From contig CP126202.1 in the NCBI GenBank assembly GCA_030272155.1, positions 744,001-808,000 on the forward strand: a DNA stretch of 64,000 nt, in the 5' to 3' direction. How positions within the stretch are numbered: the stretch's first letter is position 1; each line of letters begins with the position of its first letter. This DNA is from Tetradesmus obliquus (taxonomy: Eukaryota; Chlorophyta; Chlorophyceae; Sphaeropleales; Scenedesmaceae). The notes under the pieces were generated by a model, which ran no database searches, was not told where the DNA came from, and worked only from the letters and a program-made list of their open reading frames with translations. The translations under genes and the position numbers were made by a program. This document shows, piece by piece, positions 1 through 64,000 of this stretch.

Positions 1-687
1 AACGAAAAAAATGTGATGTGAAAGGTGCGTCATTACATCAACACTCCAGGTACTGTCGCGCTGGCAAAAAAAACGCATAGACAGCGGCTGAGCCTGAGCA
101 CTGCATGGCATGCAACCCTGGACTGCTCTGGGCAGCTCAACCGCAAGCAGACACAACACGGCGCGCACCCTGACAACAAAAACACTACCTATATGGAATG
201 CATGCGATCGACATGATCATGACCAGGTGATCCTGCAAGGCAGCGGTCTGCATCGCAACGCCAGCAGCATCGCTTCCTGCAACATCCTGCAACATCCTGC
301 AAACATACCACCTGCCACACCACCACCAGGAAGCCCCCCATCACAGCACCGCCAGTCAGTCACAACGCACGATTGCCGCCGCCGCTATTGGCGTTGATGC
401 TATGGCTTGATGGGTAATATGATGATGATGATTGCCAGGCACTCGAACACCATGACCCCTTCACCCAGGAAGCTGAAAGCAACACACCAGCAGCAGCAGC
501 AGCACGCGCAGCTCTGCAGCAATGCATGCATTTCCACTGTCCTGCAGTAGTTCTAGTTGAGCTATCCATCAATTGATCACACACTGCTGCCGCTGCTGCT
601 TGCAAACTGCTGCTTTACACGTACGGCTCTGCTGCCAACAGGAGCTGCGCCGCTGCATTACACCTCAGGCAATTGATCAAAAAGAAA
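1..687. other. 3' flank of the S1P lyase gene, no gene seen
   Basis: No convincing coding exon. On the minus strand this is downstream of the lyase and of its duplicated last exon. Minus-strand TGTAA motifs (plus-strand TTACA) at about 657-661 and 612-616 lie within 80 bases of the duplicate's stop and resemble the chlorophyte polyadenylation signal. The stretch near 455-515 resembles 1135-1195, so the duplication of the last exon also carried some downstream flank. Confidence 0.5.
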
Positions 688-690
688 TTA

Positions 691-1050
691 TGGCGCCAGC
701 ACTACATCCTGGTACGCCACCAGAAACTCCCCAATCAGCCCCCAATCAGGGCTCACACCCGCTAAACCATACAGCGGCGCTGACCCCTGCGCCCCTAAAC
801 CCCCCGGATCCTTCGCCAAAACTGCCAGCGCCGCCTTGATATCCGCAATCAGCCCTGGCACCACATCCACGTGCTGCGCAGTGAAGCAGAAGTGCAGCGC
901 AGCCGGCCGCTGCAGCGCATTCAAATGCCACCCCTTTTGCGTCAACAGGTCATTCAAACAATACACATTCAGCTTGGCAGGATCAGCGGCCGCAAACGCA
1001 ACCACTGAGGCATGCGGCTGCCCTAACACGCGAAGCTCTGGAAGCTGCAG
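691..1050 (-). repeat. Second copy of the S1P lyase terminal coding exon
   Basis: A 360-bp block that aligns without gaps to 1263-1622 (the C-terminal part of the real last exon), offset 572 bp. The reading frame is open, differs by only a few residues (for example DI for DV, DWG for DRG) and ends in its own stop (TAA against TGA). On its 5' side it begins at an internal CTGCAG that could act as a splice acceptor. It could be an alternative last exon or an unused duplicate; the sequence alone does not decide. Confidence 0.8.
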
Positions 1051-1259
1051 CGCCAGAAAGCCCCCAATCAATACGATACATACATACGATACACCGAGTC
1101 AGCCGCAACGCACAACAACCAGCCACTCATCATCATGCCGCGCCGAACCAGGAAGCTAGAAGCAACTCACCAGCAGCAGCACGTGCATCTCAGCCGCGCT
1201 GCATGCAGGCCAACAAACTGTTGCGTGATGTTGACCCCAGGCGACCGATCACACAAAGA

Positions 1260-3193
1260 TCAAGGCGCCAGCACTGCATCCTGGTACGCCACCAGAAACT
1301 CCCCAATCAGCCCCCTGTCAGGACTCACACCCGCTAAACCATACAGCGGCGCTGACCCCTGCGCCCCTAAACCCCCCGGATCCTTCGCCAAAACCGCCAG
1401 CGCCGCCTTGACATCCGCAATCAGCCCTGGCACAACATCCACGTGCTGCGCAGTGAAGCAGAAGTGCAGCGCAGCCGGCCGCTGCAGCGCATTCAAATGC
1501 CACCCCTTTTGTGTCAGCAGGTCATTCAAACAATACACATTCAGCTGTGCAGGATCAGCCGCTGCAAACGCAACCACTGAGGCATGCGGCTGCCCCAGCA
1601 CCCGCAGCTCCGGAAGCTGCAGGGACAGCTGCCGTTTGAAGTCCCGTGCCGCCCGCATGATGCCATCTGCTGCATTCAGCAAGCCGTCGTGTCCTAGAGC
1701 CACCAGGCTGGCCCATGCTGTGGCAATGACTGCGCCTGATCGTGACCCTGCCATGGTAGGTGAGATGTAGAGGCCGCCGCTCCAATCTGTAACACTCGTG
1801 TACTGGTGCTGCCGCAGCTCTGCAGGCAGCATTGAACACACAAAGAGGCAGTCGTGAACACGACGGTTGTGCAGTCGGTGAACTAGTGGCTCCGCAGCTC
1901 TGCAGTTTCAGTGACATTGAATATTGAGCCAGCAAATGTAGTGGGTGGTTTGAATGACTGCGCCTGAGCGTGAGCCTGCCATGGTGGGTGAGATGTAGAG
2001 GCCGCCGCTCCAGTCGGTGACGCTGGTGAACTGGTGCCGCCGCAGCTCTGCAAGCAAAAAATCACAGCCAACAACACACTCACTAGTGACGAGGTTGTCA
2101 ACCACATGGTGACCTGGTGACGCCGAAAGCGCTGCAATTGCGATTGTGATGCCAGTGAAACGGTGGGCGGGCAAAATGTTTTAGTTGATGACTGCGCCTG
2201 AGCGTGACCCTGCCATGGTGGGTGAGATGTAGAGGCCGCCGCTCCAATCTGTAACACTTGTGAACTGGTGCCGCCGCAGCTCTGCAACAGCGAAAGGCAG
2301 TCAAACAAAGAGGCCGGATGGCCCTTGTCGTTCAATGCGCTCGCAAGGCAACGATGAGATGGTGGCTTCGCAGATTTGCAATTGCAGTTGCAGGAACAAA
2401 GGGGCAGAAAGTTTCAGTTTGATGTTGGATGACTGCGCCTGAGCGTGAGCCTGCCATGGTGGGTGAGATGTAGAGGCCGCCGCTCCAATCTGTGACACTC
2501 GTAAACTGGTGCCGCCGCAGCTCTGCAGACAGCATTGAACAACACACAAAGAGGCAGTTGTGAACATGACGGTTGTTCAGTTGGTGAACTAGTGGCGCCG
2601 CAGCTCTGCAGTTGCAGTGGCAGCGAAAAAAAGGGGGCAGAAAGTTTTGATTTGTTGTTGGATGACTGCGCCTGAGCGTGAGCCTGCCATGGTGGGTGAG
2701 ATGTAGAGGCCGCCGCTCCAGTCTGTAACACTTGTGAACTGGTGCCGCCGCAGCTCTGCGATACAATACAACAGTGCCAGACAGTTTACCGCTATAAGTT
2801 TGCAGCACGTCAGACAGTACACAGCTGCAGCTGTGCATATCGTGGTATTGCTGCTGCTGCTGAAGCAGCAGCAGCTTTTGTGTAGCCGTTGATCACATCC
2901 TTACTCACCTGGGCTCCTGTACAGCACCACGCTGGTGCCCTTGTGCGCCATGCCTAGTAGTAGGACAGAATACAAACATAAATTCGAAACAAAATCAAAC
3001 ATCTGCTCGCCTGGCGACCTGAACAGCACCACGCTGGTGCCCTTGTGTGCCATGCCTAGTGAAAGGACAGTGTACAAACATGTATTTGAAACAAAATCAC
3101 ACATCTCACTCACCTGGGCTCCTGTACAGCACCACGCTGGTGCCCTTGTGCGCCATGCCAAACTTGTGCGTGTCAACGCTCATGGAGGTGACG

Positions 3194-3224
<31 letters not shown>

Positions 3225-6200
3225 CCGGACAGGTGAAGCATAGGTAGGCAGCTGTCAGGGTGTGTGGTGTTTGTTTGAGGGGTACGAAGGCAGGCCAAGG
3301 GGCGCTGAGCGGCAGCAGCAGCAAACAGGCATGTCACAACCTAGCCGCTTTCGACCTGGAACCTTGAAAGCTCAAGAAACATGTGCGCACTGTCCCATGC
3401 TAACGCTGTCGCAGCCTGTTACAGCAGCCACACCTGGCACCCTCGAGTTAAGGGCAGGCACGTCATAGCCCAGCTACTCCATAACTTTAAACACAGAAAC
3501 TGTAAAACCTGCAGCAAAACACTACACGTGCCGCACCTGGCACCCTGAAGTCGAAGACAGGCACATCATAACCCAGCTGCTCCACAAAAGGCAGCAGGAA
3601 GCCCCCTAGGCAGCCATCCACGTGGCAGGGCACGAAACAAACCAGACACAACAGCACATTGTGGCTTCAACCACCTTCAGATGGCTTTAGCACATGCAAA
3701 TACCATTTCAGAAGCACAATCACACTGTAGCCACTAAAAGATCCTGCAGAAGCAGCCGCACCTGGCACCCTGAAGTCAAAGACAGGCACATCATAACCCA
3801 GCTGCTCCACAAAAGGCAGCAGGAAGCCCCCTAGGCAGCCGTCCACGTGGCAGGGCACGCCTCTCCGAGCAGCAGCAGCAGCAATGCCTGCCACGTCATC
3901 TACAACGCCATGCGGGAAGCCTGGTGCGCTTGCAACCACGAGCACTGTGTTGCGGCTGATGCAGCGCGCGACAGACGCGCCATGCAGCCTGCAAGTAAAG
4001 TACAGCAGGGGAAAATACGTCAGCAGCAGGAGCAGCAGCGGCAGGTAGGTGCAACGGGCGACAGAGGACTTACGCCACCCGCAAGTGTAAGTGCAGCAGG
4101 GAAGGTTACATGTCAGCAGCAGCAGCAGCAGCAGCGGCAGCAGCGGCAGCGATGCCTGCCACGTCATCTACAACCCGTGAGGGAAGCCAGGTGCAGATGC
4201 GACTACCAGGACTGTGTTGCGGGTGATGCAGCGCGCAACAGGCGCGCCATGCAGCCTACCGTGCATTGAGTGTGCAAAGCAGGAGTGCACGGCGTCAGCA
4301 GCAGCAGCAGCAGCAATCGATGCAGTGCAACAAACCAGCTTGCAGGGGGCCCGCAGCTTACAGGAGGCCCGCACTTGCAGGAAGACCGCAGCCTGCAAGA
4401 ATCCTGCAGCTTGCAGAAGTTCCGCAGCTTGCAGGAATTCCGCAGCTTGCAGGAAACAGACTGCTTGCAGACATTAACGGCTGCAGCCACCCACCTGAAG
4501 TCCTTGCCCAGGGGCGCCTGCACCAGCTTGAGGTTGATCAATCATGAAATAAACCACCACACGAGCCCCTTTCGTAATATAACAATATAACACCAAAATC
4601 AGCCCCGCCTGAAGTCCTTGCCCAACGGCGCCTGCACCAGCTTGATGTTGATTCATCATGACATACACCATCAGCCACAACACAGTGACATGAGCGCAGT
4701 TTGTACCACATGATTCATAACAGAAATACCAGCAGCCCCACCTGAAGTCCTTGCCCAATGGTGCCTGCACCAGCTTGATGTTGAAGTACTCTGCAGCCTT
4801 CCAGTAGGCAGCATGCGCGGAGGGGCCCACCACCATCTCAGGGCAGGTGATGCCTCTGCTTTCAGCCATGTAGTCGCGAGCTGCCTTGATGGCAAGCAGG
4901 ATGCTCTCAGTGCCGCCTGCATACACAAACACGTGCATCGTCCACTGTCATTGAGCAGAACCCATCTTGTTTGCAGCTATGAATTCGCTGACACCTGCCC
5001 TTCCCGCACACCAGCGCCGCCCACCTGAGGTCATTGAACGGCACACACCAGACACTGTGGTCCGTAGCCCACCATGCAGCAGGCCCGCTGCCACATGTAC
5101 AACACAGCCCATGCAGCCGACCTGAGGTCATCGCGCCGCAGTGCCCGGCCCGCCGCGCAGCAATTTTGCAGTCATGGCGATGACCTCCGCCTCCACCTTG
5201 ACACACACAACACAACAAATTGTATATAACTAATCATCCGCCCGGCGCTCACGGGGACCCAGGCGCTCACGGGGACCAAAGCAGGACCCATCAACTGCAG
5301 CTCACCTGAGGTCACTGCGCCGCACACTTGTGGAGCATTTGTCCCTGGCCCGCCGTGCAGCATGTTTGCAGTCATGGCGATCACTTCTGCCTCCATCTGG
5401 CGCACGCTAGGGAAGATGTCGCCGTGCAGCGGGTTGGTCCAGCTGAAGAGGCAGAACACATCGTCCAGCAGCTGCTTGTGCTCTTTGTCTAGAGATGTTG
5501 CAAAGGCAACAAGGCAACAAGGCAGCAAGGCAACAGTGATGATGGAGGTACAGCTCGCATTAATGTATTTCTGTGCAGCGGGTTGGTCCAGCTGAAGAGG
5601 CAGAAGATGTCATCAGCAGCTGCTTGTGCTCCTCATCTGCAGAGTGTGACACCAACAGGTTCATGTCAACAGTTGCACACGTGTTGCCCAAGCATCGGTA
5701 TTGCTGTGCGGCAGTGCAGCGGTGTCCCTGGCAGCGCCAGCTTGCCACCACAGTTCCCACAGCCACGCACGCAATTCAGTCCAAAACTGCCCACATGCTG
5801 ATAGTGCGTTGTAATACTTGCGTGGCGCAAGACTTGGTCAATTTATAGTAGAATTGTCCCGCAGTTGCGACACGCACCCTTGATGTAGACCACCCCCGAC
5901 ATGCTGTTGGTGCCGGGCGCCACGCGCACGTTGCGCGACTCCTTGGCTGCACGGCACATACGGCGGCGGCAGCAGCAGCAGCAGCAGTGGCAGCAGCAGC
6001 AGTGGCAGCAGCAGCAGCATGCACAATAGTAATGAGTTAATGAATTGGCCAGCAGGCAGTAGCATCAGCACAGTACAACAGCACAGACCTAGCTGATGCT
6101 GCTGCCTGATGCTGCTGGCCGGTGCTTATTGAATATGTTATGTATGTTACGTATGTTTATTGATGACGTGTCGGCCAGCGCCTCACCTTTCAGCAGCTCC

Positions 6201-8318
6201 AGCACTGCTGCTGCAGGACTGCCCTGCTTGGGCAGGTGCGCCATTGCCAAGCCATCCCGCTGGATGCCTGCTGCAGTTTTCACATTTAGTTCAAAACATG
6301 TTACATAACATGTCAGCCGTCTCCTCACCTTTCAGCAGCTCGAGTACTGCTGCTGCAGGCCGGCCCTGCTTTGGCAGGCGCGTTATCGCCAAGCCATCCC
6401 TCTGGATGCCTGCTGCTGCCTGGTGCTAATATAACATGTTACATGTGTTACATAACATGCAATTCAAACGCTCACCTTTCAGCAGCTCCAGGACTGCTGC
6501 TGCAGGCCGGCCCTGCTTAGGCAGGCGCGTCATTGCAAGGCCATCCCTCTGGATGCCTGCTGCTATCTTGGCTGCGATCTTTGCCTTCTCCTTAGCCAGC
6601 AGTCCCCGGATGATGGGTGCTGACCGCAGGCAGGCGCAGGCCCAGTTGACGACGCCTTGGCGGCGGATGCGCTCTAGCTTGGCTGCTGCTGCCTGCTCCA
6701 ACAGCAGCAAAGGCAGCAGGAGTGAGCACAGATGTCACACAACAAGGTGTTTGCAGGCAGGCGCAGGCCCAGTTGATCGGCCCCTGGCGGCAGATACGCT
6801 CGACCTTGGCTGCTGCTGCCTGCAGGCGCAGAAAAAGCAGGTATAAGGCAAGGGACCTTAGCAGCAGTCTTGGCCGTCTCTGTTCTTCCAGCAGGCCGCA
6901 GATGATGGGTGCTGCGCGCAGGCAGGCGCAAGCCCAGTTGACGACGCCTTGGCGGCGGATGCGCTTGACCTTTGCTGCTGCTGCCTGCGCGAATCGAGGA
7001 CCAACAACAGCAAGAGTGAGGACAAATGCACAAATGTTATACCAAAAGGGTTTGCAGGCAGGCGCAGGCCCAGTTGACAAGTCCCTGGCGGCAGATGCGC
7101 TCGAGCTTTGCTGCTGCTGCCTGCAGGAGCACATTGAAGAGCAGAAATGACTGCTGAATCATACAGGCGTGGGGGTGTGCTGCCTTGCAGGCCCAGTTGA
7201 CCACTCCCTGGCGGCGGATGCGCTCCAGCTTCGCTGCTGCTGCCTGCAGGAGTAGGATAATGGAGCATGGTTGGCAGCATGAACGAGCATGTGATACATA
7301 CGTGCACTGGGACTTGATGCTGTGCAGGCCCAGTAAAATTATGTGCTGCTGCTGTTGACTGCTGCAACATGATGCAGGCACACACAGCAGTCTGTCCAGC
7401 ACCACAGTGCATAGCTCTTCTGCTGCTGCTCCTGCTATCCATAGTAGGCTGTGTCATCGTACTGCTGGTTACTGTTGCACCGTTGCCTGCTGCAGCAGCC
7501 AGATGCAGTAATGTGTAGTGCACCACAATGCTGACCTGTGCTGCGGTGACCAGCAGCAGTGTGGCTCCCGCTGCCAGCAGCAGCACCTGCCAGGGCCGGA
7601 AGCGGCCCAGGGCTGCATCCACTGCTGCTGCAGAGGCCTGCAAGAACAAACACATCAAAGGCGATTGCAGCACACACGGTTGAGGCAACAGCTGTTGTGG
7701 GCATGCTGCTGCTTGCTGGCTGGCTGCGATGCGCTGGCTGAATGTTGCGGGCAGCTGCAGCTGCTGTCGCATGTTGTGCTGCCATGCATGCTGCTGGCTG
7801 CCACGCACTGCCGCTGGAGTGTGGCCTGCAGCGCAGCCCTCCAGCCGACCAGCAGAATGCTACTCTGTCGCAACCAAAACTGTGGAATGCCTAACAAACG
7901 TAGTAGAGGCCATGCCAAGCATGCAGATGCTGCTGGCTGCCATGCATAAGGCTGTGCTGCAGCTGCAGTGCCTCCAATGAGCACACACACGCTAAAGCAT
8001 GGCTGACGCGCAACATATGATTACAATACATTGAATCATGTGCTGAACAGATAAAAAGGGCTGATATATCTGTGATTATGCCGTTCTTAAGCTGACATTC
8101 TGCAGGTATCTGCGGCAACAGCAGCGCACCTGCAACTGCGGCAGGAGAGGGTCCACCAGCCGGTGTAGCAGCGGCCCAAGCGGCCTCGCCAGGTTGTCCA
8201 GTGCTGCTACCAACGCCCTCATTATCTTATGGAACTCGGGGCCTATCTGCTGCGCTATGGGAGTGAGGAATTTGAGGTAGGGTGCCAGCAGCTGCTGCAG
8301 CCCAGCAGGCAGGCCCAT
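1260..8318 (-). CDS. DPL1: Sphingosine-1-phosphate lyase, PLP-dependent
   Basis: Cleaves phosphorylated long-chain bases to phosphoethanolamine and a fatty aldehyde at the ER membrane, the exit step of sphingolipid breakdown. Exons (plus coordinates, read right to left): 8130-8318, 7536-7637, 6476-6692, 5878-5946, 5306-5488, 4742-4916, 3762-3988, 3114-3194, 1260-1819. They total 1803 nt, 600 residues, with matching phases throughout; animal lyases are about 570. An N-terminal membrane helix lies in exon 2 ([19 protein letters not shown]). Family blocks follow in order: [41 protein letters not shown], the PLP lysine in DTHKFG (about Lys398), [17 protein letters not shown] and [11 protein letters not shown]. 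The start is the only good ATG before exon 1. All introns except the first contain echoes of neighbouring exon edges. Identity is firm; the first two exons are less certain. Confidence 0.93.
1888..2765 (-). repeat. Acceptor-edge echoes of S1P lyase exon 9
   Basis: Upstream of the real exon 9 acceptor lie four long copies (about 1960-2050, 2190-2285, 2430-2525, 2670-2760) of its first 95 or so bases, coding [20 protein letters not shown], and shorter remnants near 1888-1905 and 2588-2610. Most keep GCAG before the exon sequence. The copies stop just after the codons for SGAV, where the true exon runs on into ATAWASLV, so none replaces the real exon. Confidence 0.9.
2905..3070 (-). repeat. Donor-edge echoes of S1P lyase exon 8
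   Basis: Two copies (about 2905-2960 and 3005-3060) of the last 50 or so bases of exon 8, coding [16 protein letters not shown]. The 2905 copy ends in GTGAG like the real donor; in the 3005 copy the sequence after the exon match is CGAGC. Both begin at a CTAG that is absent from the true exon, so the 2905 copy looks like a complete mini-exon bounded by AG and GT. Neither contains the PLP lysine. Confidence 0.88.
3425..3640 (-). repeat. Donor-edge echoes of S1P lyase exon 7
   Basis: A long copy (about 3535-3640) repeats the last 100 or so bases of exon 7, coding [18 protein letters not shown], with a GT donor. A shorter, more diverged copy lies at about 3425-3475, and a third trace may be present near 3355. 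Confidence 0.85.
4150..4257 (-). repeat. Acceptor-edge echo of S1P lyase exon 7
   Basis: Copy of the first 90 or so bases of exon 7 (coding [19 protein letters not shown]) preceded by an AG, upstream of the real exon. It breaks down after FPHG and runs into a CTG tract. Confidence 0.85.
4335..4475. repeat. Short minisatellite around CAGCTTGCAGGAA
   Basis: About seven imperfect units of 16-20 bp built on CCGCAGCTTGCAGGAA, in intron 6 of the lyase. It is not an obvious copy of an exon edge. Confidence 0.7.
4494..4660 (-). repeat. Donor-edge echoes of S1P lyase exon 6
   Basis: Two copies (about 4494-4540 and 4608-4655) of the end of exon 6, coding [14 protein letters not shown]. The 4494 copy is followed by GTGGGT and the 4608 copy by GCGGGG. 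Just upstream of the match both carry TGATCAA or TGAATCAA in place of the true exon sequence. Confidence 0.85.
5025..5200 (-). repeat. Donor-edge echoes of S1P lyase exon 5
   Basis: Two diverged copies (about 5105-5195 and 5030-5100) of the end of exon 5. The better one still reads EAEVIAMTA and GGPGT, and both end in a CAG|GT junction like the real donor. Confidence 0.75.
5573..5645 (-). repeat. Acceptor-edge echo of S1P lyase exon 5
   Basis: Copy of the first 70 or so bases of exon 5 (EHKQLL and the SWTNPLH coding stretch, the latter out of frame) after a CTGCAG acceptor, upstream of the real exon. Confidence 0.8.
6180..6420 (-). repeat. Donor-edge echoes of S1P lyase exon 3
   Basis: Two copies (about 6184-6270 and 6325-6415) of the last 80-90 bases of exon 3, coding [14 protein letters not shown] and [10 protein letters not shown], each followed by GTGAGG. 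Confidence 0.9.
6755..7245 (-). repeat. Acceptor-edge echoes of S1P lyase exon 3
   Basis: Four copies (about 6755-6823, 6905-6988, 7055-7123, 7187-7243) of the first 55-75 bases of exon 3, coding [20 protein letters not shown] with substitutions, each after a GCAG. With the two copies on the other side, this exon has both edges multiplied. Confidence 0.92.
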
Positions 8319-21244: not shown

Positions 21245-22915
21245 TGTCAGCCATGCAGGCAAGCAGTATTTGCGTAAAAGCAGCATGCTGCAGTGCAGAG
21301 CTGCTGCACTACGCTTCCTAGATCAGAGCGGAAGCCTTGACCGCAGGTGCTGGCCTGCTGCAGCAGGCTTGCTGTGTCACAGAACACGCCCAGCATGCTG
21401 CTGCCCTCGCTGCATCGCCTCACCAGCACGTTGCTGCCCTTGTCAGAGAGCACATCACGTTGCCCTACACACTGCGTCCACATACATGTATGTGCACACA
21501 AAGTGCAGCATATCACACTGCAGCGCAGAGTAACTGCATGCAGGTGCTCACCAGCATGTTGCTGCCCTTGTCACACAACACATCACGTTGCCCTACACAC
21601 TGCGTCCACATACCGGTATTTGCACACAAAGTGCAGCACATCACACTGCAGCACAGAGTCACTGCATGCATCGCCTCACTGTGCTGGTGAAAATGTTGCT
21701 GCCCTTGTCACACAACACATCACATTGTCATACACGCTGCGTCCACACCATGTGCAGCTAATCATATGATACTGCAGCGTAGAGTTACTGCATGCCTTCC
21801 CTCACCAGCACGTTGCTGCCCTTGTCAGAGAGCATGCGCTTGGGGCGGGGCACGGCTGGGTCGTGGCGGCCTGGCAGCAGCAGCGGCAGCAGCAGCAGCG
21901 AAGACTGCATTGTCATCCCTAGCACGTAGACAACTCCTTTGACACCTGTTAATCTGACTTGTACCGGCAAGAATCACACCGCTGCAGCAGCTGCTGCTGC
22001 TGCTGCTGCTGCTGCTGCAGCAGCCATGACGGCAAGCAAGGAGGGAAGCCGTACGCCACCAGCTGCACTGTTCACACTGAGCTTCACACTGAATGTCGCC
22101 AGTGCACGCTGCACTTCACACCTGTGAGCACGCGTATGAAGTTCTCCACTGTCACCTCGCTGCCCCTGTAGTCCACCTCCACGTTGCTGCCGTACACGTT
22201 GAGCCGATGAGACTCATCATTGAACACCTGCGCATGCACAGGGGCCAGGTTGTTGCTGCTTAGCAAATCATTCCTGGTAATAAACGTTGCTGCCGTACAC
22301 ATTGAGCCGGTGGCTCTCATTACTGAACACCTGCGTGCATACAGCAAGGCAAACTGGATACAATGTGAGGTGCTATGTGGTTCATTTCTGCCGTATTGTT
22401 GAGCCGGTGGCTCTCATCATTAGCACCTGCGCAAGAATAAGATCAGTGGCAAATTCACAGTGTGCGCTGGGTGCATGAGGCTGCAGCTGGCTACGCCTTT
22501 TGAGCAAGCAGAGCAGCGCTACATAAGCTGCCAACTGCCATACAGAGCCCTGACCTGGCCCATGCAGGCGTTGCACAGGTTGCAGCATACTCACAATCAG
22601 AGCAGCAGCTACTTGGGCAGTGCCGCACCTGGCCACATCTTCTGCCAGCATCAAGATTATGCTGCAGCTAGCTGTGCCGTTCAAGCAGCAGCAGCGCTGC
22701 AAAAGCCTGCCAATTGCCAAACAGAGCCCTCACCTGGCCCGGGTAGGCGTTGCGCGGGTTGCAGGCCACATCCTCTGCCAACATTAGGATGATGTTGCTG
22801 TCTGGTATGCCCAAGCGCTTCACTGTACGATAGAAAGACAGCGCGTTCGCGATGTGGCGGTAGTTGTACCAGTACTTGCTGGTTGCCACCAGCACCGCCC
22901 AGTTGCTGGTGTGAG

Positions 22916-22947
<32 letters not shown>

Positions 22948-28760: not shown

Positions 28761-28800
<40 letters not shown>

Positions 28801-29001
28801 CAGGCCTCTCAGCAGGCCCTGGCACTGCTGCTGGAGCAGGCAATAGTTGCAAGCAGCAGGCAGAGCAATCTAAGGCAGACCATACACAGCAGCAGCAGCA
28901 GTACAGCTTAGAGGTGGCAATGGTGTCTGTGGCAGTACACCGGCCTGGAGCAGCAGAAGCAGCGGCAGCGGCGCCCCCGAAGAGCTACAGCCAAGCGGTC
29001 C

Positions 29002-29037
<36 letters not shown>

Positions 29038-29376: not shown

Positions 29377-29454
<78 letters not shown>

Positions 29455-36825: not shown

Positions 36826-38582
36826 ATCTAGTGTTGCGATTGCAACTGCTGCTGCTGCTGCTGCGTTGCGCTTGCTTTTGGTAAACATCATGCGAACAGC
36901 TGCCAGCAGCGGCTGAGCAACAGCAATCGCACAAGTACGCAATTTCTTCTGCTTCATCTATGATGTGTTCGGACTGCTGCTGCCACCGCACGCAGCCGCT
37001 GCTGCAGCGCCCGCTGTCGCTGGTGTGGCAAGTCACCCAGCACCGCTGCGGCAGCTGCCCATCATAGCACCTGCCTGCCTGAACCATGCCATATCATGTG
37101 TGACTGTTGTTGCGGCAGGCGGCCCTTGCTGTCGCTGGTATCATTCAATCATCAACTGCGTGGCTTATAATCACTAGGTCAATGTGTTTGGTCTATGATT
37201 GCAGGCGGCCGCTGCTGCAGCGCCCGCTGTCGCTGGTGGCGGAGGTTACTCGGCACCGGTATGGCGGCCGACTCGTGTCGCTGCACAGCTGCGTGCAGCT
37301 GGTCAACGCGACAGCGCTGCCGCTGCAGTTCGGCTGTGTGAGCGCCAGTGGTGTCGGTGTTGCTGCTGCTGCTGCTGCTGGGGAGCCGCTGCTGCTGGAA
37401 GTGCTGGCGCCTGGCGATTCAGTGTGGCTGCCGCTGCAGGTGAGAAGTGTGTTCAGATTGGGAGGCATTGGCTGCGTTTGGCAGCAGCTGTGCGTGATGC
37501 ATTGCTTTTGAGTCGGGCTCCTACGTCTGTGTTGTTGGGTGATGTTGAGCATGCCAAGAGGTTTGCATGTAAGGCATTGTGAGGGCATCCTGCTCTACCA
37601 TGCAGAAGTGCCTGGGATCCAAGCCATGCATTTGGATTCGTTGCTCTGATCAAGAGCTCATCAATAGTTGGTTTAGCCATAATGAATGCATTTCACAGCA
37701 TGGCTGCTTTTCTGCATGTTGTGTATGTGTGTTGCAGGTGCTGCAATCCGGCGCCCCAGGTCTGAGCCTCAAGCCAGTTGGTCCAGCTTGCAGCTACTCC
37801 TGGTGCAAGCCCCTGGATGTGCTGTCACTGCTGCCAAACACGCCAGCTGGCAGCAGCAGCAGCAGCAGCAATGCGCGGCTCGCTGCCGCACGCAACAAGG
37901 CAGCAGCTGATCCAGATGTGGAAGGGTTCTGGTACTGCCCTAGCCCTACCGGTGGGAGCAGCAGCAGCAGCAGGGCTGGCAAGCTCACCTCCCGTTGCAT
38001 CAGTTTCATGGCTGGTGCTGCCTGCATTAGGGGCGCAGGAGAGGCTCTGAGCAGCAGCAGCAGCAGCAGCAGCAGTGGGAGTCCAGATGCGGCAGCAGCA
38101 GCAGAGGCAGCAGGCGAGATTGTGCTGTGCTTGGGGTGCCGTGCAAAGCCATGGCCCGGCACTGCTGCTGCTCCTGCAGAGTCAGGTACAACATCAGCTA
38201 CGGCTGGTGCAAAATCGGACTCAATATCAGCAGCGGCAACAGCAGCAGCAGCAGCAGCAGTAGGGAGCTCCAGTGGGATGTGGCAGCTGGTGATAGAGCC
38301 GCCAGCAGTGTTCATCAACCAACTGCCAGTGCCTGTTCAGGTCTTAGTGGTGGCGGGCAGGTCTCAACAGCAGCAGAAGCAGCAGCAGCAGCAGGGGCTG
38401 CATGCTGTGGTAGGCAGCCGGCAAAGCCTGCCACTGTATGGGTGTGAGGCAGGTGCAGTGAGCAAGATCAAAGTAAAGGCACTGGGCTTCCAGAGCAGCA
38501 GGTGGATCTCTGTCTCACTCAGCAGCAGCAGCAGCAGCAGCGGCGGCGGCGGTTACAGAGTACCCCCTTGGGAGGCTGCCGC

Positions 38583-47613: not shown

Positions 47614-47973
47614 ATGGGTGGCAAGAACAGCAAGCCTGCCTTCTCCCGCTTTGATGACCTGGTCGGGGACCACAGCGATGTGTTTGCCAAGCTGAAAGAG
47701 GTGCGGCAACATTATAAGCTGATATTTGTTTTCTTTAGAGCTGGCTACAGCAGCGCTGGTGGGTTTGTTTTGATGACCTGGTGGGGGAACACAGCGATGT
47801 CTTCGCCAAGCTGAAAGAGGTGATGAAACAGCATCTGCCCTGGATTGTTGTTTATTTATCAACTGGCTGCCGCAGTACTGATTAGTTGGGAAGTAGGTGA
47901 TCTTGTGGGGGACTACAGCAATGTCTTCGCCAAGCTGAAAGAGGTACGGCAATACATCACCTGCCTGAAATTT

Positions 47974-48572: not shown

Positions 48573-48642
<70 letters not shown>

Positions 48643-51124
48643 CAGCGAGAAGCACCAGCCGCCAAGCCGTGCGTGCCGCTGGTGCCGCTGCTGCAGCTGT
48701 CTGCTGTGGTGCCCCCGCTCAACCCTATCATGCGCATCAGTGTGTCATCTGCTGCCAGCACAGCGCGGGGAGAAGCCGAGAGCATCTTTGCCTGCGTGGA
48801 TCAGGAGCAGCAGCGGCGGGTGAGTGGTGTAAGCGCAATTTGATGCATGCACAGTATTGCTACACAGCAGACTCCAATTTGAGTCAAATTTAGGTTTTGA
48901 TTGCACACATTGTCTGCCCACAATGTCTGCCAGGAAAAGCGGCGGCGGGTGAGCGCTGCAGCTTCTTCAATGCAGAATCACTGTGCAGTAAGTGTAGTTG
49001 GGCTGGGAGTGCAGGTTAAGTCAATTGCTTGGCCGGCGTGGACCAGGAGCAGCAGCGTCGGGTGAGCAATGCCTTGCATGCGCATTAGTGCTGAAGTTAC
49101 ATCATAGCGTTATGATGCAAGGGGTGCAAATAGCGCGGGGAGAAGCCGAGAGCATCTTTGCCTGCGTGGATCAGGAGCAGTAGCGGCGGGTGAGTACTCC
49201 CGCCCCTTGAATGTTGCATGTAATGGCACAGGTGCTGCGGGGGGCAACCGCAAACGACGCTAGCGGTGCAACCACATGGGATCAGCAGCATTGCGTTGTC
49301 GTGCAGATCCGCAGCACAGCAGGCGCAGCCCAATGCACGATCCGCAAGGCTGTTGCATAGCCACTGGCTGCTGTGGCTGCGACTGCTGCTGCTGCTGTCA
49401 CCAACAGTGCTTCCTGGATGCCACCCTGCACATGCTGCTGCTACTCCTGCTGATGTCGCTGCTCTTCCGTAACAACCGCACACGTTGCTGCTTGCAGGAC
49501 AAAGAGGAGGCCTTGCATGCACTAGCAGCAGCAGCAGCAGCAGCAGAGCGTTATACAGACAGCAGCAGCAGCAGCAGTGGAGGCTGCCGGCAGCGCTTCA
49601 CCGAAGACGAGAAGCAGGCTCTAAGGGACAGCGGCAAGGCAGCTAGGGAGGCAGACAGTCAGCAGCTGGCGGCCCGGGTGGAGCAGAGTGATGCGGCACT
49701 GCGGCGGCTGAGCCAGCAAGGGCGCGAGCAGTGGTTCCAGGTGGGTTGAGGGGCTTCTGATGATATACTTGTCTTGTAGGTGTTGGGTTTGTTGACACAA
49801 GTGACTCAGCGGTGCGCCTGATGCAGCACGGGTGGCAGCTGTGGTTCCAGGTGGGTTGAGGGGGTCAGAGCAGTCTGTTATGTAGGCATTTGGTTTGTTG
49901 ACGGGCACTGATGCAGCATTGCGGCGGCTGAGCCAGCAGGGCCGGGAGCAGTGGTCCAGGTGGGTTGAGGGGTCTAGATCAAAGAGATGCTGAAGCAATG
50001 GCGGATCGTTCTTCATTCATCGGCACCGTTGAAATGAATGGGTTACCTCATGTGATGCCTTGCAGGACGACGCGCAGCAGCAACAACCTGATGCTCTTGA
50101 GGAGGTGCTGAGTAACAAAAATAACCCTGAGGCCCTTTGCTTGCATGCCACGTCCATGCTTTGCAGGACAACGTTCAACAGCACAGTTCTCAACCTCAAA
50201 TCCTTTGATTGCTTACTTTCGCTATGCTTTGCAGGACCATCTACAGCAGCAGCAATGTGCTGCCCTCAAAAAGGGCTTTGAGCAAGTGCTTGATGAATAA
50301 CTGCCACTTTGAAACCTGTTGTTTGCTTGCCGTTAATGTACCTTGCAGGACAACGCTCAGCAGCAACAAACACATGCTCCTGAAGAGGTGCTTTGTGACA
50401 AAAGTAACCCTGAAACCATTTGCTTGCATACCACGTCCGTGCCCTGCTGGACCACGCTCAGCAGCAGCAGACAGATGCTCCTGAGGAGGGCTTTGAGGAG
50501 GAGTGTTCTGCATTCAACTGCAATGTTGAATGACAGAATGCCCTCTAGTGATGCCTTGCAGGACTGCGCCCTGATGCCCTGGCAGAGACATTTGAGGAGG
50601 TGTTGCGTAAAGCTCAACCACAAAACACTTTGCTTGCTCGTCCTTGTCGTGCCTTGCAGGACCACGCTCAGAAACAGCACAATGATGCTCCTGAGGGGGG
50701 CTGTAATGAGGAGTGTCATGCAACCATCTGCGATGCTGACAGATCTCAGTGTTCACTTGTGCTGTGTTTGTTTTCCGCGCAGGACAACCCACAGCAGCAG
50801 CAGCAGAGCGAATCCCCAAAGAGGGCTGTGTGCATACCTTGACCTCACAACCTTTTGCTGCTTGCCATTCAGCCCGCAGAACCCTGCCTTGCAGGACCAT
50901 GCACTGCAGCAGCAGTATGATCCCAATGAGTGCTACGAGGAGGAGGTTGGAAAAATGAGAGAACGGAACCCTGAAACCATTTTTTTGCTTGCCATTACCG
51001 TGCCTTGCAGGACAATGCTCAGCAGCAGCAGACAGATGCACCCGAAGAGGGATTTGAGGAGGAATGGGCAGCATTGCCGCCTGAGGTGCTTGAAATGGTG
51101 GCACAGCTGCAGGCCAGGGGATGA
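47614..51124 (+). CDS. Unknown protein with N-terminal myristoylation motif
   Basis: I do not recognise the family. Exons 47614-47700, 48196-48819, 49498-49740, 51011-51124; 1068 nt, 355 residues, all junctions phase 0. It begins MGGKNSKPAFSRFDDLV, a good N-myristoylation signal (Gly2, Lys/Ser at 5-7), so it may sit on membranes. Exon 2 is alanine-rich with a polyA tract coded by a 60-odd base GCA run. Exon 3 looks like a charged helix or coiled coil (DEKQALRDSGKAAREADSQQ, then LAARVEQSDAALRRLSQQGR). The end is acidic (EEGFEEEWAALPPEVLEMVA). All three introns hold exon-edge echoes, so extra mini-exons might be used; the last intron has nine candidate acceptors before the chosen one. I chose the final copy because it alone runs through to a longer conserved-looking end. 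Confidence 0.7.
47755..47945 (+). repeat. Donor-edge echoes of exon 1, myristoylation-motif gene
   Basis: Two copies (about 47766-47820 and 47896-47943) of the end of exon 1 (DDLVGDHSDVFAKLKE). The second begins after GTAG and both end at GAG|GT, in the same reading phase as the real donor. Confidence 0.92.
48578..48640 (+). repeat. Polyalanine-coding GCA run
   Basis: About 20 GCA triplets in exon 2 read as alanine; the same run would be Q or S in the other frames. Confidence 0.93.
48930..49195 (+). repeat. Donor-edge echoes of exon 2, myristoylation-motif gene
   Basis: Copies of the end of exon 2: the longest at 49131-49190 (coding RGEAESIFACVDQEQ, then a stop codon), shorter ones near 49039-49062 and 48933-48950. 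All three are followed by GGG TGAG, that is a GTGAG donor. Confidence 0.9.
49808..49975 (+). repeat. Donor-edge echoes of exon 3, myristoylation-motif gene
   Basis: Two copies (about 49810-49852 and 49908-49960) of the end of exon 3 (ALRRLSQQGREQW), each followed by the same GTGGGTTGAGGG as the real donor. Confidence 0.9.
50064..50960 (+). repeat. Nine acceptor-edge echoes of exon 4, myristoylation-motif gene
   Basis: Exon-like starts at about 50066, 50167, 50235, 50349, 50449, 50562, 50660, 50783 and 50895 repeat the beginning of the last exon (DNAQQQQTDAPEE). Eight are preceded by GCAG; the copy at 50449 has CTG. Spacing is about 70-125 bp. Several continue for 40-60 bases before losing similarity. 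Confidence 0.9.
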
Positions 51125-57814: not shown

Positions 57815-57817
57815 CGG

Positions 57818-58357: not shown

Positions 58358-60792
58358 CGACATCAGGTGACTGAGTAGCAACTGCCAAGCGGCAGACTAG
58401 CTGTTGCTTCAGGAAGACCTCAGCTGCAGGATCGCTTTGCTGACTAGGTCTGCGGATACGTACTAGGCATGTCAGCAGCAGCAGCAGCAGCAGCAGCGTG
58501 GCAAGGGCACCCAGTAGAGGAAGCTCATGGTGATGCTGGCAGCCAAATAAATGGTAACACACTAATCTTACATGTACATGCGTACTAAAGAAGGCAGCAG
58601 CAGCAGCAGCAGCAGCAGCAGCGTGCTTACGTGGCACGGGCTGCACCCAGTAGGGGAAGCTCATGGTGATGCTGGCAGCCATCTAAATGGTAACACACTA
58701 ATCTTACATGTACATGCGTGCTAAAGAAGGCAGCAGCAGCAGCAGCAGCAGCGTGCTTACGTGGCACGGGCTGCACCCAGTAGGGGAAGCTCATGGTGAT
58801 GCTGGCAGCCATCTAAATGGTAACACACTAATCTTACATGTACATGCGTACTAAAGAAGGCAGCAGCAGCAGCAGCAGCAGCAGCGTGCTTACGTGGCAC
58901 GGGCTGCACCCAGTAGGGGAAGCTCATGGTGATGCTGGCAGCCATCTAAATGGTAACACACTAATCTTACATGCACATGCGTGCTAAAGAAGGCAGCAGC
59001 AGCAGCAGCAGCAGCAGCGTGCTTACGTGGCATGGGCTGCACCCAGTAGGGGAAGCTCATGGTGATGCTGGCAGCCATCTAAATGGTAACACACTAATCT
59101 TACATGTACATGCGTACTAAAGAAGGCAGCAGCAGCAGCAGCAGCAGCAGCGTGCTTACGTGACACGGGCTGCACCCAGTAGGGGAAGCTCATGGTGATG
59201 CTGGCAGCCATCTAAGTGGTAACACACTAATCTTACATGTACATGCGTACTAAAGAAGGCAGCAGCAGCAGCAGCAGCAGCGGCAACTCACGTGGCACGG
59301 GCTGCACCCAGTAGGGGAAGCTCATGGTGATGCTGGCAGCCATCTGCTCCGTGTTGAACGTGTTGACCCAGTGGAAGATCAGGTGCCTGCAAGAAAATGA
59401 CAAAATAACATGTGTTAGTAACACATAGTAACAATGTTTGGTGACGCACCAAAGCTAGGAGCATGTCCTTGAGTCTGACAAGGGGGCAGCTGCAACTTGC
59501 TCCAATATGCTGAAATGGGGCGAGTCAGTTGAGTACAGAGCATCCGCCTGCTGCCAATGATAGTGTTGCTACCCTTGCTGTAACCTTGTACAAAACGCCG
59601 TTGCTGCTGCCAGCGCTGCTGTCTTGCTTAGACACCTCCCAGAGTTGTGCAGTGCACACTGACAGCTGCTGCAGCAACGTGTTCGTCTCAACTGGACAAC
59701 AAGTGCATGTGCTGCTGCTGCTGAGGATGCTGCCGCCTCACCTGGACACCTCCCAGAGTTGTGTCGTGCACAACGACAGCTGCTGCAGCACGGAGTCTAA
59801 CTGTAAGTAAATAGCAAGCAAATGCGCTGCTGCTGCTGCTGCTGCTGCCGCCCCACCTTGACACCTCCCACAGTTGTGTCGTGCACACCGACAGCTGCTG
59901 CAGCAGGGAGTGTAACTGTAACTAAATAGCAAGCAAATGCGCTGCTGCCGCTGCTGCTGCTGCCGCCCCACCTTGACACCTCCCACAGTTGTGTCGTGCA
60001 CACCGACAGCTGCTGCAGCAGGGAGTCTAACTGTAACCAAATAGCAAGCAAATGCGCTGCTGCTGCTGCTGCCACCTCACCTTGACACCTCCCACAGTTG
60101 TGTCGTGCACACCGACAGCTGCTGCAGCAGGGAGTCCAACTGCTCTGGGCTGCTCACATCACCCAGCAGCAGCTGCTCCAGCTGCCGCGCACACTGCAGC
60201 GAGTCGCCGCTGCTGCTGCTGCTGTTGCCGCCACCACCACCACCCTGCTGCTGCTGCAGCAGGTCATTCGGCTGTGGGTTATTCTGCTGCAGTGCCACGT
60301 CATGGTTTTCAAACCCTAAACCTTCAGGGTTTAGGGCTGCCAGGTTGCTGGCAGCAGAGGCTCTGCTGTTGCTGCTGCTGTGGTGCTGCTGCTGGCTGTG
60401 CTGGCTTGCGCCTGGGCATGTGGTCCCTCCATCTTCTGCTGCTGAGTAGCCCAGCCGGCGCTGCAGCTGACTCACAATCTCCTGAGACTTGGAGACAAGG
60501 GGTGCACGCTGCATTCACAAAACCAACAGCAGCAGCAGCAACAGCTTTGAGTGTTACGCACAGGGCAGCTGGTTCACAATCCCCTGAGACTTGGAGACAG
60601 GGGTTGCACGCTGCATTCACAGAACCAGCAGCGTCAGCAGCAGCAACAGCAGCATGAACGTCACGCCTGGGCATGTGGTCCCTCCATCTTCTGCTGCTGA
60701 GTAGCCCAGCCGGCGCTGCAGCTGACTCACAATCTCCTGAGACTTGGAGACAAGGGGTGCACGCTACATGTGCAAAACCAACAGCAGCAACA

Positions 60793-62251: not shown

Positions 62252-62313
<62 letters not shown>

Positions 62314-62376
62314 AGAGGTGAAGCGCATGCACAGCTTGCCGTATTCCATGACCCAGTCCTCAAGGGTGCCTGTTAG

Positions 62377-62412
<36 letters not shown>

Positions 62413-63033: not shown

Positions 63034-63067
<34 letters not shown>

Positions 63068-63550
63068 AACAATATCTCCGCAACACATTTGCATATCTAA
63101 TCGCTCACTGAGTGTACTGCACCGCTCCAGCTGCTGCTGCACTGCTGGTAGCTATGCTGGTCTGCGCTTGTGCGGTGCCTCACCTGATACAGCGCTGCCC
63201 TCGCCAGCAGCAGCAGCAGCAGCGCCACTCCCGGCCAGCCGCAGCAGTGCCATACGCTTTGTTATCTCCCGCAGCTCAACCACGATCTGTTCAAGCGGCG
63301 CCGATGAGACTTGCAGCACTGTTTCAGGCGCAACTGCTGCGCGCAGCCGCTGCGTTGTGACAACAGCACCCTCTCCACCGTCCTCCGGCTCGTCCTGCTG
63401 CTGCTGCTGCTGCTGTTGCTGTCCAAAAGACAGAGGTTCGGCATGTGAGGTGCACCTGCCGCTGCTGCTGATGGGGTGCTGGGCGTGCGCGGCAGCTGTA
63501 GGTGTTGGGGCGGCTGTATGGCAGCTGCTGGCGTTGCTCGGCGGCTGCAC
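58236..63550 (-). CDS. Unrecognised protein, C-terminal part; 5' end outside the window
   Basis: Exons visible: 63184-63550, 61992-62120, 61737-61831, 60081-60487, 59292-59386, 58236-58312; 1170 nt, 389 residues plus stop, all phases agree. The first visible exon starts at a phase 0 acceptor, so earlier exons lie to the right of the window. It is helix-rich: [54 protein letters not shown], then a Q/S/G-rich linker, [18 protein letters not shown], and [20 protein letters not shown]. The layout loosely recalls the C-terminal helical tails of algal bZIP-type regulators, but no DNA-binding region is in view and I would not assign a function. Every intron but one has exon-edge echoes. Confidence 0.72.
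58480..59280 (-). repeat. 133-bp array: six donor-edge echoes of the HLIFHW exon
   Basis: Five regular units of about 129-134 bp plus a truncated one repeat the last 54 or so bases of exon 59292-59386 ([16 protein letters not shown]), a GTAAGC donor, a CTG run of variable length and 60 bases of intron. In each unit the exon part is preceded by ATTTAG (true exon: GAGCAG), so each is a complete AG-to-GT mini-exon. Confidence 0.95.
59620..60055 (-). repeat. Four donor-edge echoes of exon 60081-60487
   Basis: Copies near 59627-59680, 59747-59800, 59852-59912 and 59969-60033 of the end of the exon ([17 protein letters not shown]). The three at higher coordinates end at a CAAG or CCAG|GT junction; some begin at a TTAG not present in the real exon. 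Confidence 0.93.
60306..60340. repeat. Telomere-like palindrome in an exon
   Basis: CCCTAAACC (60314-60322) and GGTTTAGGG (60328-60336) face each other across five bases, inside the exon and in frame. Confidence 0.8.
60540..61012 (-). repeat. Four acceptor-edge echoes of exon 60081-60487
   Basis: Starts of the exon (SQEIVSQLQ) recur near 60555-60602, 60666-60757, 60855-60893 and 60965-61005. The 60666 copy is identical to 60412-60510 over about 99 bases, so this duplication is recent; the others are strongly diverged. Confidence 0.92.
61150..61312. repeat. Inverted repeat in the intron after exon 61737-61831
   Basis: Plus-strand 61265-61300 (GCGGCTAATCATGGATGACC and onward) matches the complement of about 61175-61212 with roughly 80 percent identity. 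It is the only inverted copy of this kind noticed among the otherwise direct duplications. Confidence 0.75.
61550..61640 (-). repeat. Donor-edge echo of exon 61737-61831
   Basis: Copy of the last 75 or so bases ([20 protein letters not shown]) with a weakened GAAG|TGGG in place of the AAG|GTGAGC donor. Confidence 0.9.
62184..62380 (-). repeat. Two acceptor-edge echoes of exon 61992-62120
   Basis: Copies at about 62186-62239 and 62321-62374 of the first 50 bases ([16 protein letters not shown]), each preceded by an AACAG or AACAAG-type intron end and a CTG run. Both leave the exon at the same base, where the true exon has GT. Confidence 0.93.
62715..63050 (-). repeat. Three donor-edge echoes of exon 63184-63550
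   Basis: Copies near 62727-62765, 62838-62882 and 62953-63040 of the end of the exon; the longest reads [20 protein letters not shown] and begins after CCAG. All end in TCTG|GTGAGG. Spacer blocks around TTCAGTTGCC and CTGACTGCATGCA repeat many times from 62610. Confidence 0.92.
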
Positions 63551-63599
63551 CTGCACACAGCAGTTGGTGAAATGAAGTTGGAAATCAGGCATGCAGAGC

Positions 63600-63920
63600 A
63601 TCGGAAACTTGTTGTGTTGACGCGGCAGCATGGCAGCTGCTGGCGTTGCTGGGCGGCTGCACCTGCACACAGCAGTTGGTGAAATGAAGTTGAAAATCAG
63701 GCATGCAGAGCATCGGAAGCTTGTTGTTGTGTTAACGCGGCAGCATGGCAGCTGCTGGCGTTGCTGGGCGGCTGCACCTGCATGCAGCAGTTGGTGAAGT
63801 GGACATGAGACATGCAGCAGCATTGTCAGCTGCTGTTTGGGTGAAGGCTCTGCCACTGCAGCATGGCAGCTGTTGGCGTTGCTGGGCGGCTGCACCTGCA
63901 TGCAGCAGTTGATAAATTGT
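63600..63920 (-). repeat. Three acceptor-edge echoes of exon 63184-63550
   Basis: Copies at about 63630-63663, 63745-63780 and 63862-63900 of the first 35-40 bases of the exon (VQPPSNA), each after a TGCAG and a CACCAACTGCTG-like branch region. They sit in the intron that leads out of the window. Confidence 0.9.
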
Positions 63921-64000
63921 AGCAAAACAGGCTTGCAGCAGCATTGTCAGCTGGCTTGTGTGCCACAGCGGCTGCTTGCTCTGCATGATGTTATGTTGAC

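What the first reader, a model, noticed from the sequence alone, without database searches (positions are those of the whole stretch)
1..64000. Exon-edge echoes: introns filled with tandem copies of the neighbouring splice junction
All seven genes have introns that carry tandem copies of the adjacent exon's edge with a splice site: the 3' end plus GT donor of the upstream exon, or AG acceptor plus 5' end of the downstream exon. I count roughly 30 arrays with 1 to 9 copies. Each array copies only its own exon, so this is not one mobile introner family. Copies range from identical over about 99 bases to barely alignable, which points to a continuing process. Intron gain by duplicating an AG|GT segment is an established model; a locus where nearly every intron shows it is, as far as I know, unusual. 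Whether the extra sites act in splicing is open.
Basis: partly seen in the sequence, partly recalled or inferred. Interest (0 to 1): 0.88.

Follow-up and report, generated by a model that had tools for sequence, protein, structure and literature searches.

The report
Exon-edge copies crowd algal introns
In the green alga Tetradesmus obliquus, many introns contain extra copies of the end of the neighbouring exon together with its splice signal, spaced about 120 bases apart, and the exon part stays strangely intact while the DNA beside it drifts.

Summary
The window fits chromosome-scale Tetradesmus obliquus DNA (104.66 Mb, 17 contigs). Of 26 introns in three window genes, 16 hold a copy of their own exon edge at or above the 99th percentile of cross-gene pairs. 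Of 211 introns from six loci, 63 do; same-intron reverse complements give 1.5% and 1.6%. "Nearly every intron" is therefore too strong. Averaged over arrays, similarity runs through the exon edge and the splice consensus (GTRAG or YAG) and fades within about 10 bp of intron. Successive copies lie 91-313 bp apart, median 124. Repeats outside predicted genes show the same spacing peak, so the source looks like general ~120-bp tandem duplication, tolerated where splicing removes the extra copy. Plain duplication and neutral decay fails: a simulation predicts a lost flank in 3% of the best-matching copies; I see 9 of 12. Differences are mostly synonymous, yet stops and frameshifts occur. Best reading: the exon part keeps exchanging with, or descends from, functional exon edges of other haplotypes. 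Selection on the copies is not excluded.

The parts
1949..2755 (-). four intronic copies of the 5' edge of the last SPL exon region (in-place exon 1263-1823); acceptor AG kept in all four
   Evidence: 99-bp edge 90-96% identical among copies; all 8 variable columns among them at third codon positions; spacers 0.54-0.69 except c3/in-place 0.89 (shuffled 0.57)
2909..3056 (-). two copies of the 3' edge + donor of SPL exon 3115-3183
3537..3634 (-). 98-bp copy of the 3' edge + donor of SPL exon 3762-3990, two synonymous differences; spacers on either side unrelated by eye (flank 0.61)
4157..4255 (-). copy of the 5' edge + acceptor of SPL exon 3762-3990
4495..4651 (-). two copies of the 3' edge of SPL exon 4741-4916
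5112..5198 (-). copy of the 3' edge of SPL exon 5304-5489 with a 16-bp deletion (reading frame broken)
5573..5614 (-). copy of the 5' edge of SPL exon 5304-5489
6187..6409 (-). two copies of the 3' edge + donor of SPL exon 6477-6695; the one at 6187-6270 matches an extra segment in the annotated T. obliquus protein P0001
6745..7250 (-). four copies of the 5' edge + acceptor of SPL exon 6477-6695
21419..21710 (-). three copies of the 3' edge of PIGK exon 21803-21880, graded decay (9, 7 and 6 of 10 residues)
22283..22335 (-). copy of the 5' edge of PIGK exon 22120-22230
22480..22585 (-). copy of the 3' edge of PIGK exon 22734-23048, mostly its intron flank
26170..26219 (+). copy of the 3' edge of the VPS13 exon ending near 26108 (exon end set by eye)
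   Evidence: read
26913..27079 (+). two copies of the 3' edge of VPS13 exon 26453-26868
30468..30506 (+). copy of the 3' edge + GTGAG of VPS13 exon 27355-30386, spacers unrelated by eye
35428..35786 (+). three copies of the 3' edge + donor of the VPS13 exon ending 35344
36992..37045 (+). copy of the 5' edge of VPS13 exon 37205-37439 (no AG in front)
44497..44541 (+). copy of the 5' edge of the VPS13 exon starting 44623 (CTG in place of CAG)
47769..47952 (+). two copies of the first-exon 3' edge + donor of the gene starting near 47613 (exon end read by eye; the gene finder placed it elsewhere)
49028..49189 (+). two copies of the 3' edge + donor of predicted exon 48196-48819; one has a stop codon
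58473..59275 (-). six units of about 133 bp, each with a copy of the 3' edge of predicted exon 59292-59386; five keep GTAAG at the junction
59600..60085 (-). four copies of the 3' edge of predicted exon 60081-60514; three keep GT

Best explanation
T. obliquus undergoes frequent local tandem duplication with a unit near 120 bp. Duplications inside exons are largely weeded out by selection [inferred]. Those that straddle an exon-intron junction survive because splicing removes the extra copy, so introns collect copies of their exon's edge with its splice site [origin: supported]. Afterwards the exon-derived part does not decay like the spacer beside it [shown in the sample]. I infer that units keep being exchanged by unequal crossing-over or conversion, between array units and between diverged haplotypes, so that today's intronic copies were, in recent ancestry, functional exon edges and carry coding-like, mostly synonymous differences, while spacers drift freely [inferred]. 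Most copies are now untranslated intron sequence with usable-looking but mostly skipped splice sites [inferred].
For: Own-edge excess in 211 introns and 16 of 26 in three window genes. Distance between 83 successive copies: median 124, none under 91, no frame preference (23/36/24), and a 100-140 peak also for intron-only repeats and repeats outside predicted genes. Spacer homology is still detectable in 22 of 48 arrays, 36 of 99 pairs at or above the 99th percentile of unrelated flanks, which supports a tandem unit of edge plus spacer. Mean similarity drops just beyond GTRAG/YAG. A pure decay simulation gives flank identity under 0.75 in 3% and 14% of copies with edge identity >=0.97 and 0.90-0.97; observed 9 of 12 and 21 of 30. 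Synonymous fraction parent-copy 0.60 (0.54-0.65, 31 arrays) and 0.65 (0.57-0.74, 27 arrays), against 0.31 fully neutral and 0.45-0.47 half-constrained; yet stops 6 against 7.2 expected and 21 of 27 indels frameshifting. SPL array: edge and spacer similarities disagree (c3 spacer 0.89 to the in-place exon's, c3 edge 0.96 to c4 but 0.88 to the in-place exon), as exchange predicts. At three SPL residues the in-place exon is derived while a copy keeps the residue of relatives.
Against: No mosaic clustering of mismatches within copies (3 of 41 at p<0.05), which partial-tract conversion would predict. Copy-copy synonymous fractions (0.53, CI 0.38-0.70; 0.58, CI 0.40-0.79) do not exclude the half-constrained null, nor clearly does the curated SPL/PIGK set (parent-copy 0.55, copy-copy 0.52, no interval computed). 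The SPL array has 8 of 8 changes at third positions and four identical peptides in copies whose spacers have largely diverged, which looks like selection on the copies themselves. In 26 of 48 arrays spacer homology is not detectable at that threshold, so a tandem origin is inferred there. In one C1 array the spacers are identical while the edges differ. Exon bases are covered by local repeats at 11.4% (introns 19.4%, outside genes 14.5%), so weeding-out in exons is not clean; part of this is parents of edge copies and copies that my finder took as exons. No population or sister-strain DNA was available, so haplotype exchange is untested.
Confidence: 0.5

Rival explanations
1. Plain neutral tandem duplication across junctions: copy and spacer decay at the neutral rate; the apparent exon boundary only reflects purifying selection on the in-place exon.
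For: Spacing and geometry; residual spacer homology in 22 of 48 arrays; stops and frameshifts at about neutral frequency; copies with a stop or frameshift have synonymous fraction 0.52 (0.44-0.61), compatible with half-constrained decay; partial-unit similarity also occurs in intron-only and outside repeats (48% of 29 and of 40 cover at most 0.6 of the unit).
Against: Simulated decay does not reproduce intact edges beside lost flanks; copy-copy pairs, both intronic, also have edge more alike than flank in 35 of 38; clean copies have synonymous fraction 0.67 (0.61-0.72).
Confidence: 0.2
2. The copies are under direct selection: they are alternative exon edges, in-frame extra exons, or decoy/backup splice sites that the alga uses.
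For: SPL array with 8 of 8 third-position changes and identical peptides in four intronic copies; donor or acceptor kept in most copies; an annotated T. obliquus SPL protein includes one copy as an extra segment; clean copies look constrained.
Against: Outer edges lack splice sites beyond chance (copies that look like complete exons were partly absorbed as exons by my gene finder, which leans against this rival); spacing shows no multiple-of-three preference; stops 6 vs 7.2 expected and 21 of 27 indels frameshifting; the proteins that I read for SPL (P0002, P0003) and PIGK (P0121, P0122) have one copy only.
Confidence: 0.2
3. Edge-only copying: a repair or template-switch process, or insertion with a long target-site duplication, inserts the exon edge plus new filler rather than a tandem unit.
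For: Edges with few differences beside unrelated spacers (98-bp SPL copy 3537-3634 with two differences; VPS13 30468-30506); in the C1 array the last copy is followed by a spacer unlike the identical spacers of the others.
Against: Spacer homology in about half of the testable arrays; the same spacing peak in intron-only repeats and repeats outside predicted genes; ten spacers searched in the 314 kb gave, beyond their own array, only short or CAG-like hits, so no filler source was found.
Confidence: 0.08
4. Assembly artefact (haplotype pieces interleaved or collapsed repeats).
For: I could not see reads.
Against: Copies are diverged and numerous, follow splice boundaries, and recur on six contigs; a T. 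obliquus protein record that differs from the window at several residues, so probably from another strain or haplotype, contains one of the copies.
Confidence: 0.02

Closest known systems
[quoted passage not shown] potato RdRp case, PMC4974935; Drosophila cases, PMC2891723; passages seen)
   Same: Local tandem duplication that involves exon sequence and splice sites; the potato duplication also crosses an intron-exon boundary.
   Different: Here the copies that I read sit inside existing introns, often in arrays, and 63 of 211 sampled introns have them; the exon part is maintained while the spacer is not; no new intron is needed.
Introners / introner-like elements (Micromonas, PMC3488318 passage; fungi, PMC4457414 listing and abstract start only)
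   Same: Repeated sequences filling many introns of one genome.
   Different: Introners share one family between genes; here each array copies its own exon edge, and the one array searched is unique in the genome.
Tandem exon duplication and mutually exclusive exons (recalled)
   Same: Repeated exon sequence with coding-like divergence in an intron.
   Different: As a rule copies are exon edges with one splice site, not whole exons with two.
Minisatellites in introns (recalled)
   Same: Tandem units of about 100-140 bp with copy-number change.
   Different: Mostly only the exon-derived part of the unit is kept: 68% of 59 edge pairs have similarity covering at most 0.6 of the unit, against 48% of 29 intron-only and 48% of 40 outside pairs (the last group includes missed genes).

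Membership tests
Introner elements | One sequence family shared by introns of different genes | tested here: not met
   Exon edges match own introns far more often than introns of other genes; one SPL array found only itself in the genome (that search skips very common words); ten spacers gave no family in 314 kb
Introner elements | Element spans nearly from donor to acceptor of the intron | tested here: not met
   Copies read by eye are internal, with spacers on both sides
AG|GT tandem-duplication intron gain | Local tandem duplication including exon sequence | tested here: met
   (spacer homology detectable in 22 of 48 arrays)
AG|GT tandem-duplication intron gain | The duplicated copy supplies both ends of a new intron | tested here: inconclusive
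   Examples read by eye have internal copies in longer introns; no outgroup gene structure was compared for intron gain
Mutually exclusive / tandem duplicated exons | Each copy has acceptor and donor | tested here: not met
   Outer-edge sites at or below random over 83 copies. Exceptions by eye: arrays 58473-59275 and 59600-60085 have AG before several copies; copies with both sites in frame may have been absorbed as exons by the gene finder
Mutually exclusive / tandem duplicated exons | Alternative inclusion in mRNA | not testable with these tools
   No RNA data; one annotated protein (P0001) has one extra copy
Minisatellite / tandem repeat array | Whole unit repeated head to tail | tested here: inconclusive
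   Met for some arrays (58473-59345, 95% matches); only 19% of 59 edge pairs cover >=0.85 of the unit

The most novel reading that the evidence does not exclude
Introns of T. obliquus act as cassette stores: arrays of silent exon edges, kept coding-competent, that are swapped by unequal exchange with the expressed edge across much of the genome, so that exon ends evolve in concert with, and draw variation from, intronic copies.
Probability: 0.25. Interest if true: 0.92.

Novelty: new variant of a known kind. Interest (0 to 1): 0.72.

Why it matters
Intron gain and splice-site duplication are usually argued from a handful of cases. Here one alga offers very many: 63 of 211 sampled introns in 314 kb. 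The arrays run from identical to decayed, so the birth, spread and decay of duplicated splice junctions could be measured directly, and the choice between duplicate splice sites tested with ordinary RNA reads. The unexpected persistence of the exon part calls for an explanation by exchange or selection. Practically, gene predictors can take copies for exons: my own gene finder did so, and the annotated SPL protein P0001 contains one.

Tried and rejected
Mini-exon idea: two early alignments (arrays near 59 kb) showed AG|copy|GT, so I suspected complete small exons; the outer-edge test over 83 copies rejected it as a rule. In-frame insertion: spacing mod 3 is 23/36/24. Current coding selection on all copies: stops and frameshifts are not avoided. 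Dead versus clean copies (18 and 65) did not separate exchange from selection, because age confounds it. Mosaic conversion: no clustering of mismatches (3 of 41). Source of spacers: none found in 314 kb for ten spacers. The first gene-finder run crashed; a later version drifted to too many small introns and was replaced by a stricter one (57 genes, 313 introns). Of these, the edge test used 211 (both exons >=45 bp, intron >=70 bp); edges more than half masked were dropped, leaving 194 and 190. One search found 153 copies; the tests used the 83 that reach within 3 bp of the junction and are >=28 bp long, so 70 were left out there (the edge-length figure uses 89). 'Validated' frames mean genes that I recognised from sequence (ClpP, ALDH6, STT3, COX15, CEBPZ, GCL, APC2: recalled, not from a call) plus SPL and VPS13 (Pfam). 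In one search, three copies under 60% peptide identity, among them the frameshifted 5112-5198 copy, were dropped before counting.
Full report
WHAT THE WINDOW IS. The window is G000:C12:744001-808000 of a 104,662,953-bp genome in 17 contigs. The size, contig number and GC match the T. obliquus assembly GCA_030272155.1 listed in PMC12571836 (passages seen); this identification is by inference. Its SPL and PIGK exons match T. obliquus proteins closely (P0001, P0121). P0001 differs from the window at several residues, so it probably comes from another strain or haplotype; I could not read the window contig's length to check further. Window genes named here: SPL, PIGK, VPS13 (PF12624, E 4.9e-27; the C-terminal VPS13_C match was below its cutoff and three other VPS13 pieces had no match), and a PAP2 phosphatase (PF01569, E 3.5e-15). 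Three further pieces, from two other genes, had no Pfam match, and other genes were left unnamed.

IS IT REAL. Low-complexity CAG tracts were masked before the repeat searches. The window has 39 clusters of local direct repeats (<=2 kb); four 50-kb blocks on other contigs have 17, 31, 16 and 28; a 5th-order Markov control gave no pair in any. Without gene models, where both copies carry an aligned GTRAG, the 40 bases upstream are more alike than the 40 downstream (mean +0.139 in the window, 25 clusters; +0.117 in the sample, 44 clusters), against +0.035 and +0.033 for intermediate and +0.010 and +0.013 for other GT sites. With a self-trained gene finder (57 genes, 313 introns in 314 kb), 211 introns passed length filters. 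Upstream-edge copies were found in 41 of 194 and downstream-edge copies in 37 of 190 at the 99th percentile of shuffled pairs; 36 and 33 exceeded the maximum of 970 and 950 shuffled scores. Controls: same intron reverse-complemented 1.5% and 1.6%; exon pieces 110-160 bp from the junction 4 of 92 and 3 of 97 (their reverse-complement controls 0% and 6.2%). Introns with either edge: 63 of 211; window 13 of 29. With exon models for SPL and PIGK supported by homologous proteins, and VPS13 from the gene finder and reading, 16 of 26 introns are positive.

ANATOMY. Copies come in two kinds: 3' exon edge with donor, and acceptor with 5' exon edge (87 and 66 copies in 93 introns); 55 and 28 of them reach the junction and were used below. 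The copied edge has median 48 bp (n 89). Counting the first intron base as 0, identity to the in-place exon in 39 upstream arrays is 0.81-0.95 over the last ten exon bases, 0.83, 0.90, 0.87, 0.73 and 0.86 at 0 to +4, 0.62 at +5, 0.50 at +6 and 0.37 at +11. In 19 downstream arrays it is 0.79-0.95 over the last four intron bases and 0.56 at -5. The boundary is a mean, not a rule: when the query spans the junction, of 66 upstream alignments 31 end near the junction (up to +10), 18 run further into the intron, 10 stop inside the exon and 7 are intron only; of 54 downstream alignments these numbers are 18, 19, 14 and 3. Successive copies are 91-313 bp apart, median 124, with no frame bias. Outer edges of copies have no more splice sites than random intron; copies that look like complete exons may have been taken as exons by the gene finder, so this test leans against mini-exons.

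ORIGIN. Spacing peaks at 100-140 bp for edge repeats (35 of 72), intron-only repeats (21 of 36) and repeats outside predicted genes (32 of 68), less so for exon-exon repeats (10 of 40); the outside group includes genes that my finder missed, in the window above all. Spacers of the same array are recognisably related in 22 of 48 arrays. The simplest source is tandem duplication of about 120 bp anywhere. In short introns most harmless placements cross a junction, which could by itself explain why edges dominate (inference from geometry). Local repeats cover 19.4% of intron bases, 14.5% of bases outside genes, 13.7% near genes and still 11.4% of predicted exon bases, so removal from exons is inferred and incomplete. 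Recent amplification is plain in some arrays: 58473-59345 has 6.6 units at 95% matches, and a C1 array has four identical 50-bp spacers, there with edges that differ more than the spacers.

WHY PLAIN DECAY FAILS. After a tandem duplication the intronic edge should diverge from the constrained exon at somewhat more than half the rate of the two spacers, so young copies should have well-preserved flanks. A simulation of that model with a similar detection rule gives flank identity below 0.75 in 3% of copies with edge identity >=0.97 and in 14% at 0.90-0.97. Observed: 9 of 12 and 21 of 30. Pairs of two intronic copies also have edge above flank in 35 of 38. So the exon part is specifically kept.

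WHAT KEEPS IT. The differences are coding-like: synonymous fraction 0.60 (95% bootstrap 0.54-0.65) in 31 arrays of genes that I could name and 0.65 (0.57-0.74) in 27 others. Expectations are 0.31 if all is neutral and 0.45-0.47 if only the in-place exon is constrained, using the spectrum at second codon positions. Copy-copy values, 0.53 (0.38-0.70) and 0.58 (0.40-0.79), do not exclude that null, and a hand-curated SPL/PIGK set gives 0.55 and 0.52. Copies with a stop or frameshift have 0.52, clean ones 0.67. The copies carry stops (6, against 7.2 expected from their nonsynonymous changes) and 21 of 27 indels break frame. These facts fit if much of the divergence built up while both sequences were functional, and the copy became intronic later. 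The SPL array at 1.9-2.8 kb is the clearest case: four intronic copies encode the same 32 residues, all 8 variable columns among them are third positions, and the in-place exon differs at two residues. One differing residue (R to Q) is R in P0001-P0004; the other (F or Y) varies among relatives. Edge and spacer similarities disagree in this array. Two further SPL sites show a derived in-place exon and a copy with the residue of relatives: copy 4157-4255 (T where the exon has S; P0001 also has S) and copies of the 5304-5489 edge (ATG where the exon has GTG). At other sites it is the copies that changed, for example in the four copies at 6745-7250. I read this as exchange among units and haplotypes. 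Long-term selection on the copies would explain the SPL array as well, but not the stops and frameshifts elsewhere; the two may be mixed. I found no mosaic pattern within copies, which counts against short-tract conversion.

USE IN SPLICING. The proteins of relatives that I read for SPL (P0002, P0003) and PIGK (P0122), and the T. obliquus PIGK record P0121, contain the repeated segments once; P0003 and P0122 bear transcript-assembly-style names. The annotated T. obliquus SPL protein P0001 contains one intronic copy as an added 28-residue segment, identical in peptide to the window copy at 6187-6270. That may be a real in-frame exon or an annotation error.

COMPARISON. [quoted passage not shown] passages seen). 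Introners are a different thing, being one family across genes (PMC3488318 passage). Nine paper searches listed no paper whose title or abstract start describes introns filled with copies of their own exon edges; the lists were capped and the library lacks most subscription journals. The Sphaeropleales comparison PMC12571836 does not contain the word intron in its main text.

VERDICT. Real, present at all six sampled loci, and not an introner by the tests made. Origin by ~120-bp tandem duplication is likely; the maintenance of the exon part is the new and unsettled point.

Noticed in passing
window 662-1056 and 1234-1628: 395 bp of the SPL last-exon tail are duplicated 572 bp away at 92% identity, so the gene's C-terminal coding part exists twice.
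   Followed up: partly
window 51591-53073: Intergenic-looking minisatellite, unit about 190 bp with an inner 11-bp repeat (CTTCACCGCAT), 7.9 copies.
   Followed up: no
window 54580-56961: Second minisatellite-like field with units of about 230 and 127 bp.
   Followed up: no
window 57817-58216: 20-bp tandem repeat (GTGTCACTTGCACTGCAGGA), 20 copies, next to an exon-echo array.
   Followed up: no
window 23510-46614: VPS13 gene whose large exons are packed with CAG/GCA tracts; of the pieces scanned only the N-terminus passed a Pfam cutoff.
   Followed up: partly
window 50000-51534: Several diverged repeats of an exon-like block starting near TTGCAG|GACCACGCTCAGCAGCAG at the 3' end of the gene from 47.6 kb.
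   Followed up: no
window 6187-6270: The annotated T. obliquus SPL protein P0001 contains this intronic copy as an added 28-residue segment.
   Followed up: partly
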